From Sporomusa sphaeroides DSM 2875 (GTDB lineage: Bacteria; Bacillota; Negativicutes; Sporomusales; Sporomusaceae), in the NCBI RefSeq assembly GCF_001941975.2, contig NZ_CP146991.1:104501-168500 (forward strand): a stretch of DNA of 64,000 nucleotides, read 5' to 3'. The position numbers and the translations under genes are program-made. The notes beneath the pieces are model-generated. The model was not told the DNA's origin, did not search any database, and saw only the letters and a list, made by a program, of their open reading frames with translations. Each line of letters starts with the position of its first letter. The first letter of the stretch is position 1. Below are positions 50,043-59,231 of this stretch, piece by piece.

Positions 50043-50462
50043 GTGCAGCTTAATCAGGCCACAGATTATGCATTCCGGGTAGTATTATATCTTGCGGGGC
50101 TGCCGTCAGGGACGGTGGAAAGCGGTGTAATTATTGCCGAGCGCCAGAATATACCCTACCGGTTTCTCCAGAAGATTGTACGCATGCTGGCAGCGGCCGG
50201 GCTGGTGAAATCGTATCGCGGGGTAGAGGGCGGGTTTGCCCTGGCAAAATCGCCGGACAATATCACATTATATGATGTTATTACCGCTATGGAAGGGCCG
50301 CTCGGTATACACCGCTGTCTGGCCGAACGCAATGCCTGCAATAAAAGCTGCGGGCAGGAGTGCCCGGTGCATCATGCGCTGGCAGGCATTCAGGAACGGC
50401 TGGCAGCCGATTTATCAAGTGTGACTTTTGCAGCATTAGCTGCTGAAGCTAAAATTAAGTAG
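50043..50462 (+). CDS. Rrf2-family transcriptional regulator
   Basis: A 139-residue winged-helix regulator. The N-terminus LNQATDYAFRVVLYLA, recognition region IPYRFLQKIVRMLAAAGLVKS and wing RGVEGGFALAKSP are typical. Four cysteines (HRCLAERNACNKSCGQEC) sit where IscR/NsrR/RsrR proteins bind an iron-sulfur cluster, but the spacing C-x6-C-x3-C-x3-C is not that of IscR. An O2-, NO- or redox-sensing role is likely because cydAB follows 11 bp downstream. GTG 50043 follows AGAAAGGTGATG. Confidence 0.9.
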   Translation: MQLNQATDYAFRVVLYLAGLPSGTVESGVIIAERQNIPYRFLQKIVRMLAAAGLVKSYRGVEGGFALAKSPDNITLYDVITAMEGPLGIHRCLAERNACNKSCGQECPVHHALAGIQERLAADLSSVTFAALAAEAKIK

Positions 50463-50473
50463 GAGGTAGGAGT

Positions 50474-51859
50474 ATGGAAGAATTACTTTTATCCCGCTGG
50501 CAATTCGGGATAACGACAGTCTATCATTTTCTGTTTGTGCCGCTGACGATCGGACTGTCGCTGATTATCGCCATTCTGGAAACTATCTATGTCCGCACCG
50601 GTAATGAAATGTATAAGCAGCAAACCAAGTTTTGGGGCAAACTATTTCTTATTAATTTTGCCATGGGTGTGGTCACAGGTATTGTTCAGGAATTTCATTT
50701 CGGGATGAACTGGTCTGAGTATTCCCGGTTTATGGGCGATATCTTTGGTGCGCCGCTGGCGCTGGAGGCGCTTACCGCCTTTTATCTGGAATCCATTTTC
50801 TTGGGGTTATGGATTTTCGGCTGGGACCGTATACCCAAAGTGCTGCATGCTGCCAGTATCTGGATTGTGGCACTGGCTACCAATCTTTCGGCCTTTTGGA
50901 TTCTGGTTGCCAACTCTTTTATGCAGAATCCTGTGGGGTATGCCCTGCGAAACGGCCGCGCAGAAATGACCGACTTTATCGCACTTATTACTAATCCCTA
51001 TGTTTTCTACCAGTTTCCGCATACTGTCTTATCAGGTTTGGTCACTGCCGGCTTCTTCGTACTTGCCATCAGTGCCTATCACCTGATCCGGAAAACCCAT
51101 GTGGATTTTTTCCGGGCATCCTTTAAACTGGGGCTTGTCTGGACGACAATCAGTTTGTTCCTCTTAATGGGCAGCGGTCATGCCCAGACACAGTTTATTG
51201 CCAAGGCGCAGCCCATGAAGCTGGCTGCCGCCGAAGCCTTGTGGGAAACGGCCAATCCGGCGCCTTTTGCCGTAGCCGCCCTGATTGATGAGGAGAACAA
51301 AACCAATTCATTTGAAATCAAGATTCCGGCCATGCTGTCGCTTATGGCTAATAATGATCCCAACACTCCGATCAGGGGGATTAATGATATTGAAAAAGAG
51401 TATATTGCCAAGTATGGCCCCGGCAACTATGTGCCGGCAGTAACCCCGGTATTTTGGAGCTTCCGCATTATGGTGGCCGCAGGCAGTGCGATGATGCTGA
51501 TTGTGCTGGCAGCCGGTTTTCTGTGGTGGCGCGGCCAACTGGAGGCCAAACCCTGTGTACTGAAAGCAGTGTTATGGAGTTTGCCGCTGCCGTATATCGC
51601 CAATTCGACAGGCTGGTTTGTCACCGAAGGCGGGCGTCAACCCTGGATTGTGGTTGGCTTGCAGCGGGTGGAAGAGGCGGTATCGCCGTCAGTTGGCGCA
51701 GGCAGCATCTGGATTTCGCTGATTGGCTTTACCGTGGTGTACGCTTTGCTGGCCATTGCCGCCATATATCTTGTGCAGAAGTTTGTGCGGCAAGGTCCGG
51801 TGGATACTCCGGTTACTCCGACTAAACCGGCAGCAAAGGGGGCGACATTGTGGAGTTAA
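50474..51859 (+). CDS. cydA: cytochrome bd quinol oxidase subunit I
   Basis: A 461-residue CydA, which oxidises quinol and reduces O2 at the heme d site. The N-terminal RWQFGITTVYHFLFVPLTIGL contains the heme b595/d histidine region, and FHFGMNWSEYSRFMGDIFGAPLALEAL is a strong family signature. The heme b558 His and Met lie further on. The Q-loop is of the short type. In an anaerobe it probably scavenges oxygen. AGGAGGTAGG precedes the ATG. Confidence 0.96.
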   Translation: MEELLLSRWQFGITTVYHFLFVPLTIGLSLIIAILETIYVRTGNEMYKQQTKFWGKLFLINFAMGVVTGIVQEFHFGMNWSEYSRFMGDIFGAPLALEALTAFYLESIFLGLWIFGWDRIPKVLHAASIWIVALATNLSAFWILVANSFMQNPVGYALRNGRAEMTDFIALITNPYVFYQFPHTVLSGLVTAGFFVLAISAYHLIRKTHVDFFRASFKLGLVWTTISLFLLMGSGHAQTQFIAKAQPMKLAAAEALWETANPAPFAVAALIDEENKTNSFEIKIPAMLSLMANNDPNTPIRGINDIEKEYIAKYGPGNYVPAVTPVFWSFRIMVAAGSAMMLIVLAAGFLWWRGQLEAKPCVLKAVLWSLPLPYIANSTGWFVTEGGRQPWIVVGLQRVEEAVSPSVGAGSIWISLIGFTVVYALLAIAAIYLVQKFVRQGPVDTPVTPTKPAAKGATLWS

Positions 51860-52854
51860 GTGTACTGTGGTTTGTTCTGGTTACGGTGCTGTTTATTGGC
51901 TTCTTTTTCCTGGAAGGGTTTGACTATGGCGTAGGGATACTGCTTCCTGTTTTGGGGAAAAACGATACCGAACGCCGGGTGCTGATTAACACTATCGGCC
52001 CGGTTTGGGATGGCAACGAGGTATGGATGATTACCGCCGGCGGAGCCATGTTTGCCGCCTTTCCACACGTGTATGCCACCATGTTCAGCGGTTTTTACCT
52101 GGCCTTGTTCCTCATGCTGATGGCCCTCATTGTGCGTGGTGTGGCCTTTGAATTTCGCAGTAAGGATGAAAATCCTGCCTGGCGCACAACCTGGGACTGG
52201 CTGATTTTTTTCGGCAGCGCGATACCTGCCTTGCTCTGGGGCGTTGCTGTTGCCAATTTAATCAAAGGTGTTCCCATCAACGCGAATATGCAGTATGTCG
52301 GTACTTTCTTCGATTTGCTTAGTCCCTATACGCTGGTTGGCGGTCTGGCCTTCCTGCTGGTCTTTATCTTCCATGGCGCTATGTATCTGACACTCAAAAC
52401 CACCGGCGAGATGGTGGAACGCGCCCGGAAGGCTGCTGTTAAGGCCGGGGTGCCGGCAGCCGTATTCTGCCTGATGCTTGTTGGTATGACCTATACCAAT
52501 ACCGATTTATTTGCCAGTACCGGCGCAGGCATAACTCTCTGGGGGGCAGTTGTCTTGTTTGTCGGCGCCTATGCCGCCGTGTATGCCAAACGCTATGGCC
52601 TGGGCTTTACTTTAAGCAGTCTGACGATTGCCTTCACGACAGTAGCTTTTTTCTGGGGCCTGTTTCCCCGGCTTATGGTATCCAGTCTCAATCCGGCCTG
52701 GAGCCTGACAATCACCAATGCGTCATCGTCGCAGTATACCTTGCAGATCATGACAGTGGCGGCGCTGGCACTGGTACCTGTCGTGCTTGTCTACCAAGGC
52801 TGGGTATACTGGACCTTCCGCAAGCGGGTTACGGCTAAAGACCTGGAGTATTGA
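51850..52854 (+). CDS. cydB: cytochrome bd quinol oxidase subunit II
   Basis: A 334-residue membrane subunit with FFFLEGFDYGVGILLP and GPVWDGNEVWMITAGGAMFAAFP signatures and about eight helices. GTG 51850 overlaps the end of cydA by 10 bp. The CydDC exporter genes often found downstream are absent here. Confidence 0.96.
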   Translation: MELSVLWFVLVTVLFIGFFFLEGFDYGVGILLPVLGKNDTERRVLINTIGPVWDGNEVWMITAGGAMFAAFPHVYATMFSGFYLALFLMLMALIVRGVAFEFRSKDENPAWRTTWDWLIFFGSAIPALLWGVAVANLIKGVPINANMQYVGTFFDLLSPYTLVGGLAFLLVFIFHGAMYLTLKTTGEMVERARKAAVKAGVPAAVFCLMLVGMTYTNTDLFASTGAGITLWGAVVLFVGAYAAVYAKRYGLGFTLSSLTIAFTTVAFFWGLFPRLMVSSLNPAWSLTITNASSSQYTLQIMTVAALALVPVVLVYQGWVYWTFRKRVTAKDLEY

Positions 52855-52933: not shown

Positions 52934-55039
52934 ATGGCGTTACAGGACGAGGATAAAGAGTATTTATGGCAGTTATCCTGGATTTATCCCGGTGGTTATA
53001 TAACCGAGCTTGAAAGCTTGGCAGAAGCTGTGATTAAGGAGCAGCTGGCCGGCGGGGAGCGTCAGAATATCCGGGAAATCGTCTGGGGAATTATGGCGAA
53101 AATCCAGCCGGAACAGGAGAATGACTTGTCAGAAGCTGCGGCTGACGATGCCGCAGCGGCTCAGGCGGAGGCTGAAGCTGTTATACGGGAAAAGGTACTG
53201 GCAGCTCTGCGTGACGGCCAGCCCCACCTCCCGGCTGAAATGGGGCCGGAGGTAATTGGTCACCTGGTGGAAGCGCTGGCAGGCAAGGATGAACTGGCGG
53301 CTAATGCCCGGGAAGCCCTTACGCGCTTAACTGACGGCAGTGCTATTGATACCTTATGCGGGCTGTGGGCCGAGTCCCGCAACCCGCACCTGGAGCAAAT
53401 CATTCTGGATGCCGGTTATCTGGCATCACAGCCACTGGGATTAAGACTTTTAACTGTGCTCAAGACCGGTGCCGACAGACGGATGCTGGCAGAAGGCCCG
53501 GCACTGATCCCGGAGTTGCTGGCGGCAGTGGATGATGCCGATAGAAGCATTGCCGGGCGGGCCAGGCGTCTGTTGCTGACCCTGACTGACCGGCAGGCCA
53601 TTAATGCGGTATGCGAAATGGTGCTTGCCGGAGAAAACGAGCGGCTGAAACATTGGGCGGCCATTGCCCGTTACGCTCCGGCCACAGCCAGTAAAGCCGC
53701 TCTCTATTATTGCATTACCGGACAGTGGGAGAACTATTATGCACTTGACTGGCAAGAGACCAGGCCTTTGCTGACCAAAGGCTATAATCAGGCCACTCCT
53801 GCCGAGCGGCAGCTGTTTTTGGCAGCTGCCCGCCGCAGCGGTCACAGTTTGCTGCTGGCCGGGCTGTTATTGGAAGGCGGCAGCCGGGATGAGTATGAAG
53901 AGCTTACCGATGACGACTGGGCAGCCATGCTGGATATGCTGGTCAGTCAGGAACGCTGGCAGGAGCTGTACCGTTTGACGTATCGGGCGCCGGCCGGCTG
54001 GGCTGCCGAGATTGTGCTGGCTTTGGACAGTGCCGGCTGGGTGCCGAAGAACTGGGAGTATACAGGCTGGGAAAAAATTTGTGCCAACTGCCCGCCGGCC
54101 GGCCGGGAGCTGTTTGTGCCGGCCGGAAGGCAGCCGGTTATGCTGGAGACGCAGGAGGTGCAAGCGGTCATTGAATGTGTTGCCATCCATCCAAATGGGC
54201 GGATTGTGGCCGGCGGCGGCAGCGACGGGCGGCTGCGCCTGTGGCAGGTGGCCAGCGGCAGCCTGTGGCGTACGGTAGACCTGCATACTGACGGTATTAC
54301 GGCAATAACCTTTACCCCGGATGGCCGTTATCTGGTGACTGCCGGCCGGGAGGCCAAGGTGCATGTCTGGCACATGCCTGATATTAAATGGGTGAGCAGT
54401 GTCAGCGGTCAGCCTGGCTTGGTTACTGCCATAACAGCCGATAACGGCGGCCGGCTGTTGGCGCTGGCATGTCCCGGCGGTGTGCTGCCGGCACGGGTTT
54501 GGACCTGGGACGGAGCGTACATGAACAACCGGGGACAGTATCCCGGCAGCCTGTTTGCTGCCGGTACCCTGAATCTGGAGCAAAGCAAAGCGGCCGGCGG
54601 CGGACGGGACGGCAAAATCCGTATCTATACGCTGGCCGGCGGCAAGGGGGGGAATCGGTCCTGGGCAGCCCATGCCGGGCCGGTTAAGGCCATGCTGTTC
54701 AGCGGCGACGGGCGGCTGCTGATTACTCATGGTGCGGATGATATGATTAAGGTCTGGACAGTTGAGGGCAGTAAGCTCTTATGGAGCGCTGGCTGTTCGG
54801 GCAGGCTGCTGGCAGTCAGCCGTGATGCGGCTGTGGCCGCTGTGGCCGGACCTGGGGGCAGTATCGCCCTGCAGCAGCTGCGTTTTACCAAGCCGCTGGC
54901 GCTGGCAACTCATGCGGACTGGCAACAGGCGCTGGTGCTGCTGGCGGCGCCTGAATGCCCGCCGGAGGCCAGGCAGGCAACCGCCTTTTTCGAGGCTGTG
55001 CTGGCGGCTAAATTTCGTTATGATATTACTTTAGCGTGA
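52934..55039 (+). CDS. HEAT-like / WD40 repeat protein
   Basis: A 701-residue cytoplasmic scaffold-like protein. The N-terminal half (about residues 60-380) is alpha-helical with HEAT-like pairs (LVEALAGKDELAANAREALTRL and similar). The C-terminal half (about 410-640) forms a WD40 propeller with units such as IECVAIHPNGRIVAGGGSDG, ITAITFTPDGRYLVTAG and VKAMLFSGDGRLLITHGADD. No signal peptide or membrane helix. GAGGGG precedes the ATG. It heads the cluster that includes the Hsp70-like, DUF1257, AAA, DUF2997 and radical SAM genes, suggesting a role as substrate or assembly platform. Confidence 0.85.
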   Translation: MALQDEDKEYLWQLSWIYPGGYITELESLAEAVIKEQLAGGERQNIREIVWGIMAKIQPEQENDLSEAAADDAAAAQAEAEAVIREKVLAALRDGQPHLPAEMGPEVIGHLVEALAGKDELAANAREALTRLTDGSAIDTLCGLWAESRNPHLEQIILDAGYLASQPLGLRLLTVLKTGADRRMLAEGPALIPELLAAVDDADRSIAGRARRLLLTLTDRQAINAVCEMVLAGENERLKHWAAIARYAPATASKAALYYCITGQWENYYALDWQETRPLLTKGYNQATPAERQLFLAAARRSGHSLLLAGLLLEGGSRDEYEELTDDDWAAMLDMLVSQERWQELYRLTYRAPAGWAAEIVLALDSAGWVPKNWEYTGWEKICANCPPAGRELFVPAGRQPVMLETQEVQAVIECVAIHPNGRIVAGGGSDGRLRLWQVASGSLWRTVDLHTDGITAITFTPDGRYLVTAGREAKVHVWHMPDIKWVSSVSGQPGLVTAITADNGGRLLALACPGGVLPARVWTWDGAYMNNRGQYPGSLFAAGTLNLEQSKAAGGGRDGKIRIYTLAGGKGGNRSWAAHAGPVKAMLFSGDGRLLITHGADDMIKVWTVEGSKLLWSAGCSGRLLAVSRDAAVAAVAGPGGSIALQQLRFTKPLALATHADWQQALVLLAAPECPPEARQATAFFEAVLAAKFRYDITLA

Positions 55040-55060
55040 GTGTGGTAAGGGGTGATGCCA

Positions 55061-56464
55061 ATGGCTGGAGGCCTGACTATTGATTTTGGCAATTGCTATA
55101 CGGTGGCAGCCTATTGGCGGCAGGATGTCCGGCAGGCGGAGGTTTTATATATTCCCGGCGTGACCCGCCCGATACCGGGAAATGCCGTTGGTCAGGCGAA
55201 AAGGGTGTACGCGGCTCCGTCTTTAATCAGCTATGGAGCAGCCGAGGCCGGTGAGGTATTGCTGGTCGGGCAAGAGGCGGCAGAGGGACTGAGCGGCGTG
55301 GCTGTTGAGCGGAAACTATTTAGTAACTTACAGGCCGACGTAATTACCGGCAAAACGGTGTATAGCCTGGCCGGCAGACGGCGGCTGAGCGGACAGGAGA
55401 TCGCCGGAGACTACTTAGCTTCGTTTATCAGCCGTGCCGGTCAGGCTCTGGGATTAGCCGGTGAAGCGGCTATTATGTTTACGATGCCGGCAGCGGCGTG
55501 CCAATCGGAAAAGATTTGGCAGCGTTACCGGCGCTGGCTGGAAAATGCCGTCCGCCAGGCGGGCTTTAGCCGTTTGGAATTGGTAGAACAACCATGGGCG
55601 GCCGCCAGGGGGGCAGGTATGCCGCTTAAGCCTGAGGCAGTATATGTTGTTATTACGGTAAACGCCGATATGGTGGAGGCTGTCATTGTCCGGGTGACTA
55701 TTCCTGCAGGCAAGGAAAACATGGCAGATGCCAGGTGTTTGATGTCAGGGCCGGGCGGCTGCTACCCTTATTCAGGCGGCAGCGGTTCTTTTTCCCAGGA
55801 TGATACCAGTAAGCGGCACCTGCGGGTGCTGAGCCGCTGTGCCGAATGGCTGACCGGCGAGGAGCCGGGCGGTGAACCGATGCAGTTGACAGCTATTGTA
55901 CAGCAGGTGTTACGGGAGGCTGAGCGGCTGGGGTATCCGGTCGGCAGCCTGGCAGGGGCAGTGGTAACAGGCAGTAGTGTAACCCCGGCGATTGTGGCAG
56001 CACTGCACAGCCTTTTTACCGGGATTCCGGTATATGATAAGCAGCCGCTGGCTGCTGCCGCTTGCGGCGGCGCAGCTCTGGCCGCCGGGGAGGATGCCTG
56101 CGGCTATATCCGCCATAGCTATGGTTTGCGTTTTTTAGCGGCAGCAGGTTACCAGTACCGTGAGCTTGTGGGAGCAGGCATGTTTTATCCGAGTACCGGC
56201 GCGGTCGGTGAATTTACGGTTAAGGCCAGCTATGACGGGCAGCAGGAGTTTGCGTTATTTATCTACCGCCTGGAAGATGGCGGGCAGTGTATTAATGAGG
56301 ACAATCCGCTGATTTTGACAACCCGGCTGCCGGCCGCTAAAGGGCAGGCAGTGCTGACAGTCAGCGTCAGCCTGGATAGTGCCGGGCAGTTACTGGTAAC
56401 AGCGACAGCGGCCGGCAGCGGCGAACTGCTTGCAGACAGGGCGGTAGTCGCTAAGTTAGTGTAA
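55061..56464 (+). CDS. Hsp70/actin-fold protein
   Basis: A 467-residue protein with an N-terminal DnaK-like ATPase fold and a short C-terminal beta-rich tail. The phosphate-1 segment LTIDFGNCYTV is recognisable, as is the adenosine segment GAVVTGSSVTPAIVAAL. The phosphate-2 loop, normally DxGGGT, reads ITVNADMVEA, so ATP hydrolysis may be weak or lost. ATG 55061 is preferred over GTG 55052 because AAGGGG is better spaced. It sits between the HEAT/WD40 and DUF1257 genes. A chaperone-like partner role is inferred only from the fold. Confidence 0.8.
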   Translation: MAGGLTIDFGNCYTVAAYWRQDVRQAEVLYIPGVTRPIPGNAVGQAKRVYAAPSLISYGAAEAGEVLLVGQEAAEGLSGVAVERKLFSNLQADVITGKTVYSLAGRRRLSGQEIAGDYLASFISRAGQALGLAGEAAIMFTMPAAACQSEKIWQRYRRWLENAVRQAGFSRLELVEQPWAAARGAGMPLKPEAVYVVITVNADMVEAVIVRVTIPAGKENMADARCLMSGPGGCYPYSGGSGSFSQDDTSKRHLRVLSRCAEWLTGEEPGGEPMQLTAIVQQVLREAERLGYPVGSLAGAVVTGSSVTPAIVAALHSLFTGIPVYDKQPLAAAACGGAALAAGEDACGYIRHSYGLRFLAAAGYQYRELVGAGMFYPSTGAVGEFTVKASYDGQQEFALFIYRLEDGGQCINEDNPLILTTRLPAAKGQAVLTVSVSLDSAGQLLVTATAAGSGELLADRAVVAKLV

Positions 56465-56478
56465 AGGAGGAGCGTGTG

Positions 56479-56859
56479 ATGTCGCATTTTACTCAGGTGG
56501 CAACCAAGATAAAAAATAAAGAGATCCTGCTGAGTGCCTTACGGGAATTAGGCTATGAGGTTGAGGAAAATACCCTGATTACAGGCTATCGCCGGCAGGA
56601 AACCCCGGTTGATATTGCTGTCCGCATGCAGCAGGGATATGATATTGGTTTTGTGCTGGGTCCTGACGGCACGTACAGCTTTGTGACCGACTGGTTTGGC
56701 GTGCAGGGGACCAATGAACAGGAGTTCACCACCAAGGTTCAGCAGCAATATGCGCTGACCACCGTCATGGAGCAGGTACGCCGCCAGGGCTTTAATGTTG
56801 TGGAACAGCAGCGGGACGCCGGCGGGGAAATACGCCTGACGGTGAGAAGATGGGTGTAG
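56479..56859 (+). CDS. DUF1257 (Ycf35-like) protein
   Basis: A 126-residue protein of the DUF1257 family, which includes Ycf35 of algal plastids and cyanobacteria. The start MSHFTQVATKIKN is the canonical family start, and ATG 56479 follows AAAGGAGG. Function is unknown in all members I know of. The 3' end overlaps an upstream ATG of the AAA gene, whose own ribosome site lies at this gene's stop codon. Confidence 0.88.
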   Translation: MSHFTQVATKIKNKEILLSALRELGYEVEENTLITGYRRQETPVDIAVRMQQGYDIGFVLGPDGTYSFVTDWFGVQGTNEQEFTTKVQQQYALTTVMEQVRRQGFNVVEQQRDAGGEIRLTVRRWV

Positions 56860-56873
56860 AGGAGGTTAACACT

Positions 56874-58421
56874 ATGGATAATTTTGCCGAACAATTCGAT
56901 ACCTATATCAGAGCGCGGGTTACACTCATTGTCATCGTGACACCTGAAGAGCAGCGCGCCATCGAGCATGTTAAGGCTGTGTGCGAGCAAAAAAACCGCA
57001 CCTGCCTGTCCTGGGACGTTGCCGATGCCTTTACGGTGCTTACCGGGCGTACCTCCCTTGATTTAAAGTGCCGGGATCCGCTGGTGGCGCTGGATTTGAT
57101 GGAAAAGGAAGGGATGGAGAATACCGGGACAATTTTTGTCTGCAAGGATTTTCATGACTTTTGGACCAATCCGCCGGTCAGGCGTAAGCTCAGAAGCGTT
57201 GTGCAGCGTCTGACCCAGACCCGGACCTCCCTTGTCATTACCACTCCCACTGGGCAAATTCCCGACGAGCTGCAGGATGAAGCCGTGGTTATGCATCTGA
57301 AACGTCCCACCGGGGAAGAGCTTGACGGCGTACTTGACGGACTGCTGAAAGGGGCCAATGTCAAAATCAATCTGACAGATACCGGCCGCGAAAAGGTGGT
57401 GCAGGCCGCTATGGGGATGACGGCAGGCCAGGCCCGCCGCGTATTCTCGAAGGCCATTGTTACCTGCGGCTGCTTGGATGACCGCAGTATTTCCCTGATT
57501 ACCGAAGATAAAGCCCAGCTTGTGCGCCAAAGCGAAGCCCTGGAATTTTTGAATACCAGCGAGACGGCTGAAAGTGTCGGCGGCCTGGGAGTGTTGAAAG
57601 ACTGGCTGCGGCTCAGGGAAATGGCCTTTACCAAAGATGCCCGTGAATACGGTTTGCCGGCGCCTAAGGGAATTGCCATGGTAGGTATTCCCGGCACCGG
57701 TAAGAGCTTAACCGCCAAAATGATCAGCAGTCTGTGGCAATTGCCGCTGCTCCGGCTGGATGTCGGCGCGCTGTTTGGCTCTTATGTCGGTGAGTCGGAA
57801 GACCGCACCCGCCGGGCGCTCAATATTGCCGAGACCATTGCCCCCTGCATCCTGTGGGTCGATGAGATTGAAAAAGCCTTTGCTTTTGGCGCCGGTGACG
57901 CCGGTACCAGCCAGCGGGTATTTGCCACCCTGTTAACCTGGATGCAGGATAAAAAAGCGCCTTGCTTTGTAGTGGCTACTGCCAATAACATTGCGGCATT
58001 ACCCCCTGAGTTAATGCGCAAAGGCCGGTTTGATGAGATATTCTTCCTCGATTTGCCGCATATGGCCGAACGCCGCGAGATTTTTGCCACCCATCTTAAA
58101 CGGCGTAATCGTAATCCGCGTGATTTTGACCTCAAACGCCTGGTGAAAGAATCGGACGGCTATGTTGGCGCCGAGATTGAACAGGCCATTATTGATGCCA
58201 TGTACTTAGCTTTCAGCGATAATATGCGTGAAATCACCACCGAGGATGTGGTTATTTCGCTAAAACGCCAAGTGCCGCTGTCGGTTTCCCAACGGGAAAA
58301 TATCCAGTACCTCAGGCAATGGCTGCACGAGGGACGCGCCCAGTCGGCCTCCTATCCGGGCGAGGTTGCCGGGGAAACAGGTTCCGCTCAGGTGCTTTTG
58401 GAAATAGAAGACCAGGACTAA
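56874..58421 (+). CDS. Ycf46-like AAA+ ATPase
   Basis: A 515-residue AAA+ protein of the Ycf46 type. The N-terminal domain (about residues 1-220) is a degenerate P-loop-like region (LIVIVTPEEQRAIEHVKAVC). The C-terminal AAA module has Walker A GIPGTGKSLTAKM, Walker B CILWVDEIEKAF, sensor 1 VVATANN and the arginine finger region RKGRFDEIFFLDLP. This is intact, so it is probably an active ATPase or unfoldase. ATG 56874 follows GAGGAGG. The C-terminal tail may contact partners. The Ycf46-Ycf35 pairing is conserved in distant phyla, supporting a shared function. Confidence 0.9.
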   Translation: MDNFAEQFDTYIRARVTLIVIVTPEEQRAIEHVKAVCEQKNRTCLSWDVADAFTVLTGRTSLDLKCRDPLVALDLMEKEGMENTGTIFVCKDFHDFWTNPPVRRKLRSVVQRLTQTRTSLVITTPTGQIPDELQDEAVVMHLKRPTGEELDGVLDGLLKGANVKINLTDTGREKVVQAAMGMTAGQARRVFSKAIVTCGCLDDRSISLITEDKAQLVRQSEALEFLNTSETAESVGGLGVLKDWLRLREMAFTKDAREYGLPAPKGIAMVGIPGTGKSLTAKMISSLWQLPLLRLDVGALFGSYVGESEDRTRRALNIAETIAPCILWVDEIEKAFAFGAGDAGTSQRVFATLLTWMQDKKAPCFVVATANNIAALPPELMRKGRFDEIFFLDLPHMAERREIFATHLKRRNRNPRDFDLKRLVKESDGYVGAEIEQAIIDAMYLAFSDNMREITTEDVVISLKRQVPLSVSQRENIQYLRQWLHEGRAQSASYPGEVAGETGSAQVLLEIEDQD

Positions 58422-58452
58422 GGCCAGCACTAAGGGAAAGGAAGGAGTTTCT

Positions 58453-58653
58453 ATGGAAAAGGAAGAACTGGAAATCACTATTGACGCCAACGGCAAAGTC
58501 AATATCAAGGTAGCCGGGGCCAAAGGCGGTAAATGCCTGGATATCACTAAACCCATTGAGGATGCCTTGGGAGAAGTCAAGGTGCGTGAGATGAACTCCG
58601 AGTATTATGAGCAGCCGGCAGATACCTTCAAGGTAAGGAATAACCAGCGATGA
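58453..58653 (+). CDS. DUF2997 small protein
   Basis: A 66-residue protein of the DUF2997 family: MEKEELEITIDANGKVNIKV, then GAKGGKCLDITKPIEDALG with one conserved cysteine, and a tyrosine-containing tail (EYYEQPADTF). AAGGAAGGAG precedes the ATG. Its last 4 bases overlap the radical SAM gene, so the two are coupled. Members usually accompany the Ycf46/DUF1257 genes. The small size and neighbour make it a possible modification target or carrier, which is speculation. Confidence 0.85.
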   Translation: MEKEELEITIDANGKVNIKVAGAKGGKCLDITKPIEDALGEVKVREMNSEYYEQPADTFKVRNNQR

Positions 58654-59231
58654 ACAGCCAAAGGCAAGAAGATGGCGGCCTGATTAATATGGCCGCCTTT
58701 TTGGCGAAATCACGCGCCAATGGTCCCGGCCTGCGTGCGGTAGTCTGGGTGCAGGGCTGCCCCCGCCGCTGCGAAGACTGCTTTAATCAGGACATGCTGG
58801 AGTTCCGGGACAATGAATGGCTGCCGGCGGCGGAATTGGCTGCCCGTATTCTTGCTGTCAGGGAAATAGACGGCGTTACCTTTTCTGGCGGCGAGCCTTT
58901 CGCGCAAGCCGCGGCTTTGGCGGGACTGGCCGAACAATTGCAGGCAGCCGGGCTCACGGTTGTTATCTTTACCGGCTATACCTATGCCGACCTTACGGCA
59001 GCCAATAACCCTGACTGGAACCGCCTGCTGGCGGCTGCCGATGTACTGGTGGCAGGGCCGTATAAGAAAGATCTGCCTTCACAAGACTATCTGTTAGGTT
59101 CTGCCAACCAGGAACTGATATATCTTACTGACAGACTGAAAAATCACCCTGACAGGCATAGCTCTCAGGGGCATACTCTGGAATTTACTGTTGATTTGGC
59201 CGGCAATATAGTAACTACAGGCTTTAAATAA
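58650..59231 (+). CDS. NrdG-like radical SAM / 4Fe-4S activase-type protein
   Basis: A 193-residue short radical SAM protein. The cluster motif is QGCPRRCEDCFNQ (CxxxCxxC) near residues 35-45, and the SAM-binding GGE motif is TFSGGEPF. Length and motifs resemble anaerobic ribonucleotide reductase and formate-lyase activases, but no glycyl-radical enzyme gene is in the window. It overlaps the DUF2997 stop (ATGA) and ends the cluster. The substrate is unknown. Confidence 0.88.
   Translation: MNSQRQEDGGLINMAAFLAKSRANGPGLRAVVWVQGCPRRCEDCFNQDMLEFRDNEWLPAAELAARILAVREIDGVTFSGGEPFAQAAALAGLAEQLQAAGLTVVIFTGYTYADLTAANNPDWNRLLAAADVLVAGPYKKDLPSQDYLLGSANQELIYLTDRLKNHPDRHSSQGHTLEFTVDLAGNIVTTGFK

What the first reader, a model, noticed from the sequence alone, without database searches (positions are those of the whole stretch)
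52934..59231. Six-gene cluster: HEAT/WD40, Hsp70-like, DUF1257, Ycf46-like AAA+, DUF2997, radical SAM
The sequence shows six same-strand genes with short gaps or overlaps, so they behave as one unit. Known: Ycf35 (DUF1257) and Ycf46 homologues occur in cyanobacteria and plastids, and DUF1257/DUF2997/AAA genes recur together. Inference: a scaffold (HEAT/WD40), an actin-fold ATPase, an AAA+ motor, two small proteins and a radical SAM enzyme together look like an ATP-driven machine that remodels or radically modifies a protein or peptide. I know of no assigned function for this combination.
Basis: partly seen in the sequence, partly recalled or inferred. Interest (0 to 1): 0.78.

Follow-up and report, generated by a model that had tools for sequence, protein, structure and literature searches.

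The report
Six-gene chaperone and radical-enzyme machine
Six neighbouring genes in an oxygen-sensitive bacterium form a unit of protein-folding machines, two small unexplained proteins and an iron-sulfur radical enzyme; the same set recurs in very distant bacteria and archaea, and part of it is kept in cyanobacteria and red-algal chloroplasts, so the function of the long-unexplained Ycf35 and Ycf46 proteins becomes testable.

Summary
The six genes are real, tightly packed and on one strand. All six lie in the same order in 9 of 9 other Sporomusaceae loci, each time just behind cydA-cydB. Four of these ten also have GrpE. In 12 of 12 cyanobacterial genomes examined, a ferredoxin gene stands beside DUF2997-DUF1257 where other loci have the radical SAM gene; that ferredoxin (Fed7) binds a DnaJ protein in Synechocystis (PMC4284462). 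I read the set as an Hsp70/AAA+ remodelling machine coupled to a low-potential Fe-S or radical enzyme, tied to oxygen stress in Sporomusaceae. The client and the radical reaction are unknown. Correction: the Hsp70 of the window's lineage has lost its DxGGGT phosphate loop. The closest published relatives are the "FtsH ternary" conflict systems, but their MoxR and vWA parts are absent from this window.

The parts
50043..50462 (+). Rrf2-family regulator, probable controller of the larger unit
   Evidence: Pfam Rrf2 121.8 bits; found upstream in 6 of 9 Sporomusaceae stretches; the other 3 stretches end within or just before cydA
50474..51859 (+). cydA, cytochrome bd oxidase subunit I
   Evidence: Pfam 583 bits; directly upstream in 9 of 9 Sporomusaceae loci; in no other fetched locus tested
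51850..52854 (+). cydB, cytochrome bd oxidase subunit II
   Evidence: Pfam 363 bits; 79 bases before gene 1; 9 of 9 Sporomusaceae loci
52934..55039 (+). gene 1: HEAT/WD40 scaffold protein, 701 aa
   Evidence: WD40 71.6 bits; HEAT_2 in orthologues L060 and L063; orthologue in 9 of 9 Sporomusaceae loci
55052..56464 (+). gene 2: degenerate Hsp70 (nucleotide-binding domain and SBD-beta-like end, no lid), 470 aa
   Evidence: four orthologues tested are HSP70 at 60-133 bits; DxGGGT motif lost
56476..56859 (+). gene 3: DUF1257 (Ycf35-like), probable start 56479
   Evidence: 96.5 bits; nearly invariant N-terminal MSH; AlphaFold2 mean pLDDT 89.4
56850..58421 (+). gene 4: Ycf46-like AAA+ ATPase with one Walker A (GIPGTGKS, residue 279), probable start 56874
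   Evidence: AAA 100.9 bits; single Walker A; alignment A1; tree
58453..58653 (+). gene 5: DUF2997 small protein, 66 aa, conserved G-x-x-C
   Evidence: 61.3 bits; Cys in 44 of 46 aligned rows
58650..59231 (+). gene 6: short radical SAM protein (CxxxCxxC and GGEP motifs), 193 aa
   Evidence: Fer4_12 110.3 bits; CPRRCEDC and GGEP present; nearest solved proteins by sequence are pyruvate formate-lyase activating enzymes

Best explanation
The six proteins work together as one ATP-driven chaperone machine coupled to an iron-sulfur/radical enzyme. Shown: the six genes are one conserved unit, and the same set recurs across phyla in several gene orders. Inferred: the HEAT/WD40 protein is the scaffold that recruits clients; the Hsp70 (with an intact nucleotide motif in most other lineages and GrpE in some; a degenerate, client-binding subunit in Sporomusaceae) holds the client; the Ycf46-type AAA+ ring pulls on it, with DUF1257 (N-terminal MSH) as adaptor or pore tag; DUF2997 with its conserved Cys docks the low-potential Fe-S partner, which is a radical SAM enzyme in the six-gene loci and ferredoxin Fed7 in cyanobacteria. 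In Sporomusaceae the unit is linked to Rrf2-cydAB, so it probably acts in recovery from oxygen or Fe-S stress by opening and restoring oxygen-damaged or radical/Fe-S proteins.
For: Same six genes, same order, 9 of 9 other Sporomusaceae loci. All six families on one strand in 10 of 48 AAA-anchored loci outside Sporomusa and cyanobacteria, in five phyla including archaea, with differing gene orders. Per family in those 48, by script: radical SAM 33, DUF2997 31, DUF1257 23, HEAT/WD40 19, Hsp70 16. Same method on 31 cyanobacterial ycf46 loci: DUF1257 31, HEAT/WD40 1, the other three 0. Only 2 partner-family hits lay far off or on the opposite strand in 1.78 Mb. A GrpE cluster in 8 of 38 loci compared, 7 of them matched by Pfam GrpE; 4 of the 10 complete loci have it. 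DxGGGT is intact in all 7 GrpE-bearing loci that have an Hsp70; a GrpE profile finds nothing in the window, L017-L025, L067 or L071, where the motif is lost or altered. Natural DUF1257-DUF2997 fusion, one identical sequence in L028 and L029. A ferredoxin stands beside DUF2997-DUF1257 in 12 of 12 cyanobacterial genomes examined; Fed7 binds DnaJ, an Hsp70 partner (PMC4284462). cydAB directly upstream in 9 of 9. The fed7 mutant is sensitive to oxidative and metal stress and iron limitation (PMC4284462); the slr0373-slr0374(ycf46)-slr0376 operon responds to oxidative and iron stress (PMC7496141).
Against: No client, product or phenotype is known. cydAB linkage is confined to Sporomusaceae among the loci tested, so oxygen stress may be a local adaptation. 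The degenerate Hsp70 in this lineage weakens the word 'chaperone' here, and GrpE is absent from 6 of the 10 complete loci. DUF1257 was not found by the script beside the AAA in 25 of the 48 loci (24 after adding L101) and radical SAM in 15, though many contigs are short. In one complete locus, L063, the radical SAM protein lacks the first cluster Cys. The radical SAM tree splits the six-gene rows into two branches that the AAA tree joins (quick trees). Relatives of the AAA also sit in contractile-injection, phage-tail and sulfatase-modifying-factor neighbourhoods, so the AAA family is reused. Most cross-phylum loci are metagenome assemblies (titles).
Confidence: 0.45

Rival explanations
1. A biological-conflict (anti-phage) system of the NTP-dependent chaperone kind: the AAA+/Hsp70 part keeps an effector in check, and the radical SAM enzyme modifies the small protein DUF2997, which is the effector.
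For: The eLife 2020 'FtsH ternary' systems combine a two-part AAA+ protein whose N-terminal domain is inactive with a radical SAM enzyme and a small peptide gene; about 14% of GAP1-N2 systems have HSP70 and GrpE (PMC7159879). More distant AAA relatives neighbour FGE-sulfatase (6 of 50 neighbours scanned) and FHA (6 of 50) genes. DUF1257 occurs in 15 phage records and 11 plasmid records.
Against: PADLOC gives only AAA-domain hits (IetA, TRIP13), a DUF1156_MTase hit at E 0.04 and a weak viperin hit. The AAA gene is found in 10 of 12 family genomes (own included), the two without it being 58% and 72% complete, with the full six at a fixed place behind cydAB in the window and all nine others: not the patchy pattern of defence genes. 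No MoxR or vWA match in the window. Parts are kept by cyanobacteria and plastids.
Confidence: 0.22
2. The radical SAM enzyme installs a modification on DUF2997 near its conserved Cys (RiPP-like), and the rest of the cluster folds, delivers or senses the modified small protein.
For: DUF2997 is 66 aa with a conserved G-x-x-C; Cys kept in 30 of 30 rows with a radical SAM gene in the locus. Genes 5 and 6 are adjacent or overlapping in the window and in L056, L057, L058, L059, L060, L062, L063 and L071.
Against: They are apart in L061, L067, L069, L072 and L101. The Cys is also kept in 13 of 15 rows without a radical SAM hit in the locus and in the cyanobacterial rows printed, where a ferredoxin stands instead. 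The radical SAM protein is short, with no Pfam match to an extra peptide-handling domain.
Confidence: 0.15
3. A lineage-specific assembly or repair factor set for cytochrome bd in Sporomusaceae.
For: Directly behind cydAB in 9 of 9 Sporomusaceae loci.
Against: No other fetched locus, including the 10 complete six-gene loci elsewhere, has a cydA or cydB match in its stretch.
Confidence: 0.08
4. DUF1257 carries a glycyl radical (motif G-Y in a hairpin loop) made by the activase-like radical SAM protein.
For: The nearest solved relatives of gene 6 are pyruvate formate-lyase activating enzymes; DUF1257 has a conserved G-Y-x-G, with G plus an aromatic residue in 19 of 21 rows that have a radical SAM gene in the locus.
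Against: The motif is at least as well kept where no radical SAM gene is present (GY in 31 of 31 cyanobacterial rows, against 14 of 21); cyanobacteria and plastids are oxygenic.
Confidence: 0.03

Closest known systems
FtsH ternary systems (MoxR-vWA subsystem 3; Kaur et al., eLife 2020, PMC7159879; section 21 and passages read)
   Same: AAA+ protein with one active AAA domain behind an N-terminal part without a P-loop, radical SAM enzyme and a small protein gene; beta-propeller and helical parts
   Different: No MoxR-type AAA and no vWA protein in the window, and neither among the families matched by two or more of 97 neighbours of related loci; instead Hsp70 (with GrpE in 8 loci), DUF1257 and DUF2997. 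A vWA protein does lie near a more distant AAA relative, L078, among phage-tail genes. The paper's figures and supplements were not seen, so its peptide gene may or may not be DUF2997
Cyanobacterial duf2997-ycf35-fed7 operon and ycf46 (PMC4284462, abstract and passages)
   Same: DUF2997 and DUF1257 adjacent, with a low-potential [4Fe-4S] protein; DnaJ partner of Fed7; ycf46 next to a DUF1257 gene in 31 of 31 cyanobacterial loci of the capped list
   Different: Ferredoxin instead of radical SAM; within 8 kb of ycf46 only 1 of 31 has a HEAT/WD40 hit and none an Hsp70, DUF2997 or radical SAM hit
Hsp70-GrpE chaperone pair and CDC48/FtsH-type AAA+ unfoldases
   Same: Hsp70 orthologues with intact DxGGGT, some with GrpE; AAA domain closest to p97/CDC48 among solved structures by sequence
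   Different: Hsp70 degenerate in this family; tied to DUF1257, DUF2997 and radical SAM
NrdG/PFL-activase radical SAM proteins
   Same: Fer4_12 domain, CxxxCxxC; NrdG model 91.2 bits
   Different: Below the NrdG cut-off of 126.1 bits; no glycyl radical enzyme among the six genes

Membership tests
FtsH ternary system (MoxR-vWA) | MoxR-type AAA+ gene in the neighbourhood | tested here: not met
   8 AAA_3 matches in the genome (1 over the cut-off), none inside G000:C1:104501-168500
FtsH ternary system (MoxR-vWA) | vWA protein in the neighbourhood | tested here: not met
   3 VWA_2 matches in the genome, none in the window; other VWA models not run
FtsH ternary system (MoxR-vWA) | AAA+ protein with inactive N-terminal AAA and active C-terminal AAA domain | tested here: inconclusive
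   One Walker A at residue 279 and an N-terminal half without Pfam AAA match; N-terminal fold not modelled
FtsH ternary system (MoxR-vWA) | radical SAM gene plus small standalone gene (simpler type) | tested here: met
   genes 5 and 6; whether gene 5 is the paper's peptide gene is not known
Hsp70 | HSP70 family match | tested here: not met
   window gene 2 has no HSP70 match at E 0.1 and is not found by PF00012 in its genome; four orthologues match
Hsp70 | phosphate-2 motif DxGGGT | tested here: not met
   VITVNADM in the window; lost in 10 of 10 distinct Sporomusaceae sequences, kept in 15 of 17 others
DUF1257 (Ycf35) | Pfam match over the cut-off | tested here: met
   96.5 against 22.2 bits
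DUF2997 | Pfam match over the cut-off | tested here: met
   61.3 against 24.1 bits
Radical SAM enzyme | CxxxCxxC cluster motif and GGEP motif | tested here: met
   CPRRCEDC and GGEP in the window; both in 45 of 47 hits, L063 and L054 lacking the first
Radical SAM enzyme | Pfam Radical_SAM score over cut-off | tested here: not met
   28.5 against 29.5 bits; Fer4_12 110.3 against 22
NrdG activase | NCBIfam NrdG score over cut-off | tested here: not met
   91.2 against 126.1 bits
Ycf46 AAA protein | full-length similarity to cyanobacterial ycf46 | tested here: met
   cyanobacterial loci at 40-44% identity over most of the length; the label Ycf46 is from papers and recall, not from a model
Known anti-phage system | specific PADLOC match for several of the genes | tested here: not met
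   only AAA-domain hits (IetA, TRIP13) and weak DUF1156_MTase and pVip hits, in 2 of 6 proteins

The most novel reading that the evidence does not exclude
A chaperone-coupled radical machine: an Hsp70/AAA+ unfoldase opens a client protein so that a dedicated radical SAM enzyme can modify or repair it, with DUF1257 and DUF2997 as the adaptor pair; cyanobacteria and plastids keep parts of the same set but feed it with a ferredoxin. This would be a previously undescribed kind of protein repair or maturation, and would give Ycf35 and Ycf46 a function.
Probability: 0.25. Interest if true: 0.88.

Novelty: new variant of a known kind. Interest (0 to 1): 0.7.

Why it matters
Ycf35 and Ycf46 are encoded in red-algal and diatom plastids (listing) and in cyanobacteria; a paper seen in passages treats the ycf genes it studied as hypothetical proteins without reported function (PMC5940233), while another cites a role of Ycf46 in carbon dioxide use (PMC7496141). 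Seeing their families in one compact unit with Hsp70 and a radical SAM enzyme elsewhere suggests a common job in Fe-S or radical protein maintenance, and gives anaerobic organisms in which it can be tested. If the coupling of an unfoldase to a radical enzyme is right, it is an undescribed route of protein modification or repair.

Tried and rejected
Glycyl radical on DUF1257: considered because gene 6 resembles activases; the motif does not track the radical SAM gene. Fold of DUF1257: confident model, but no clear PDB match (best Foldseek E 0.11; best VIA-align Z 6.7, KA1 domains: inconclusive); among viral predicted structures only two unnamed proteins of 147 and 128 aa had E below 0.001, probably DUF1257 relatives. 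The DUF2997 model is weak (mean pLDDT 72, pTM 0.46) and gave no match. No solved relative of DUF1257 or DUF2997 by profile at a convincing E-value (best 0.051 and 0.21). Mixed alignment A2 misplaced the DUF2997 rows and was not used. cydAB linkage as a general feature: rejected, Sporomusaceae only. Oxygen papers on Sporomusa: the 12 of 29 listed gave none that fits. The table is superseded, because its overlap filter dropped real genes in L067, L071 and L101; still drops DUF1257 of L101, which searches show, so I count 10 complete loci where the script says 9. The Walker B pattern was too narrow and is not used. Literature on this combination: searches listed no paper that I could see to treat the six together (one search listed 40 of 48); figures and supplements were not searched.
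Full report
What is there. Six same-strand genes at 52934-59231 code for a HEAT/WD40 protein, an Hsp70-like protein, DUF1257, a Ycf46-like AAA+ ATPase, DUF2997 and a short radical SAM protein. Gaps are 12, 11 and 31 bases, and genes 5 and 6 overlap by 4. In 4 of 9 family relatives the first possible start of the AAA gives 515 aa, which corresponds to the ATG at 56874 here, so the listed overlap with DUF1257 is probably not real. DUF1257 probably starts at 56479, because its N-terminal Met-Ser-His is almost invariant (Ser in 72 and His in 71 of 73 aligned rows).

Where it lies. The genome is a Sporomusa or very near one: a genome that the search calls 'same genus' (G143) has a contig of the same length as Sporomusa sp. 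KB1 NZ_VLKC01000002.1, brought in separately as L055. In the family, 10 of 12 genomes searched (own included) have the AAA gene; the two without are 58% and 72% complete. In 9 of 9 other family loci all six genes lie in the same order, and cydA-cydB lie directly upstream in 9 of 9. The Rrf2 gene before them is seen in 6; in the other 3 my stretch ended within or just before cydA. No other fetched locus has a cydA or cydB match. So the unit probably reads Rrf2-cydA-cydB-six genes; co-transcription is inferred from spacing and conservation only. Promoter-like matches were 15 against 8.4 expected from shuffles, terminator-like 15 against 11.3, which decides little.

Does the set recur? I scanned the species-genome collection with an AAA alignment. 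They comprise 31 cyanobacterial loci, one Sporomusa (the same genome as L023) and 48 others. With profiles built from the window proteins, counting only same-strand hits within 8 kb, the 48 others hold radical SAM in 33, DUF2997 in 31, DUF1257 in 23, HEAT/WD40 in 19 and Hsp70 in 16. For the 19 with at least 5 kb on both sides the counts are 17, 15, 8, 11 and 10. All six occur in 9 by the script and in 10 when L101 is added (its DUF1257 ORF overlaps an over-long AAA start): L057, L058, L063 (Chloroflexota), L059, L060 (Planctomycetota), L061, L067, L101 (methanogenic archaea), L071 (Actinomadura) and L072 (Myxococcota). Near-complete sets, one family short, are L056, L062, L069 and L103 and, from the plasmid search, the Pseudanabaena plasmid L053, in which no radical SAM hit was found. 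As an internal control, the 31 cyanobacterial ycf46 loci treated alike hold DUF1257 in 31, HEAT/WD40 in 1 and none of the other three. In 1.78 Mb of loci only two partner-family hits were far off or on the opposite strand. Gene order differs between phyla while the set stays, as expected when selection keeps the set together rather than one block being copied. Most of these loci are metagenome assemblies by their titles.

Trees. In the AAA tree 18 rows with the six-gene or near-complete set need 5 changes against 16.4 for shuffled labels; the Sporomusaceae group with the methanogens (98). The radical SAM tree again joins Sporomusaceae with the methanogens (91) and recovers the Myxococcota group and the Clostridia/Melainabacteria group, in line with inheritance as a unit. 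Against this, the radical SAM tree places the Chloroflexota/Planctomycetota rows on another branch than the Sporomusaceae and methanogens, and pairs L092 with L100 and L103 with L134, unlike the AAA tree. Both are quick trees with several weak or open forks.

Extra member. A GrpE-like cluster occurs in 8 of 38 loci compared, 4 of them among the 10 complete loci; 7 of 97 neighbouring ORFs from 18 selected loci match Pfam GrpE (I scanned 97 of 104 listed). No other family was matched by more than 3 of the 97.

The Hsp70. In Sporomusaceae the phosphate-2 motif DxGGGT is gone in 10 of 10 distinct sequences, the window's included; it is intact in 15 of 17 other sequences found, one of which looks like a canonical DnaK and one is very divergent. 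All 7 GrpE-bearing loci with an Hsp70 have the intact motif. A profile of the GrpE cluster finds nothing in the window, in L017-L025, or in L067 and L071 where the motif is altered; nor does it in L058, L061, L072, L081, L084 and L101, where the motif is intact. The window protein keeps a C-terminal stretch that aligns with the Hsp70 substrate-binding beta domain and ends before a lid. So this lineage probably has a client-binding Hsp70 that no longer cycles ATP. Two ordinary Hsp70 genes lie elsewhere in the genome.

Cyanobacteria. In 12 of 12 genomes examined (chosen by me from the 31 cyanobacterial loci) the best DUF2997 gene is followed by DUF1257 and by a ferredoxin gene, with one ORF inserted in one case. 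The ferredoxin was tested by Pfam in one (Fer4_13, 68 bits) and recognised by its cysteine pattern in the rest. In one genome a second DUF2997 gene lies beside an Hsp70 gene (L175, 102 bits); in L171 and L174 an Hsp70-like gene lies about 1.5 kb away on the other strand. A 2014 review describes this operon in Synechocystis (abstract and passages read). It says that Fed7 binds the DnaJ protein Sll1384 in a two-hybrid test and that the fed7 mutant is sensitive to oxidative and metal stress and to iron limitation (PMC4284462). Another paper says that the operon of slr0374 (ycf46) responds to iron deficiency, oxidative stress and high light among other stresses, and that its inactivation lowers extracellular carbonic anhydrase activity (PMC7496141, passages). 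So the same small pair is tied to a low-potential Fe-S protein and to an Hsp70 partner in both worlds.

How it probably works. See Best explanation. Shown: the unit, its recurrence and the motifs. Inferred: that the proteins form one machine, that the AAA and Hsp70 act on a client, that DUF1257 and DUF2997 are the adaptor pair (a natural fusion, one identical sequence in L028 and L029, DUF1257 at residues 1-115 and DUF2997 at 162-210), and that the radical SAM enzyme acts on the client or on DUF2997. The radical SAM motifs are present in 45 of 47 hits; L063, one of the ten complete loci, lacks the first cluster Cys. So it is probably catalytic in most.

Variants. In the same order and class as the window (L026, L027) the AAA, DUF2997 and radical SAM genes come with a protein whose C-terminal part is a remote DUF1257 (profile match probability 97.4%, E 9.5e-12) and with small helix-hairpin-helix-like proteins (named from reading the sequence). 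More distant AAA relatives sit among contractile-injection or phage-tail genes and FGE-sulfatase and FHA genes (50 of the 51 neighbours listed were scanned); the AAA family has thus been put to other uses.

Compared with what is known. The closest description found is the FtsH ternary system (PMC7159879, section 21 read). It shares the two-part AAA, the radical SAM enzyme and the small gene, but is defined by MoxR and vWA proteins, which are absent from this window. I therefore do not file the cluster there, though it may work alike. My searches listed no paper that I could see to treat the six families together.

Noticed in passing
window 50043-52854: Rrf2-cydA-cydB directly upstream of the six genes, conserved in the family: cytochrome bd beside a probable Fe-S regulator in a presumed anaerobe.
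   Followed up: yes
L051 4802-5381 (Prochlorococcus phage P-SSM2); 15 phage records: P-SSM2 carries DUF2997 and DUF1257 as overlapping genes shortly before its DNA polymerase gene; the function in the phage is unknown.
   Followed up: partly
L028 9167-9835 and L029 9590-10258: DUF1257 and DUF2997 fused in one protein, in a Bacillota region that, from reading the sequence, resembles a mobile element with PRTRC-like genes.
   Followed up: partly
L052; L075, L078, L083: DUF1257, DUF2997 or the Ycf46-like AAA near phage-tail or extracellular contractile injection genes (sheath, tube, baseplate, eCIS_core, pentapeptide repeats).
   Followed up: partly
L100, L134, L103, L068, L081: One protein cluster (c8) near AAA relatives; its L100 member is FGE-sulfatase-like. 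The conflict-system paper calls such domains variable sensors.
   Followed up: partly
L031-L050 (viral contigs): 20 viral contigs encode Ycf46-like AAA proteins; 14 of 20 have no hit of the other five families within 8 kb.
   Followed up: no
L054 (Paenibacillus urinalis plasmid): Radical SAM, AAA, DUF1257 and DUF2997 together on a plasmid with phage-like replication genes.
   Followed up: no
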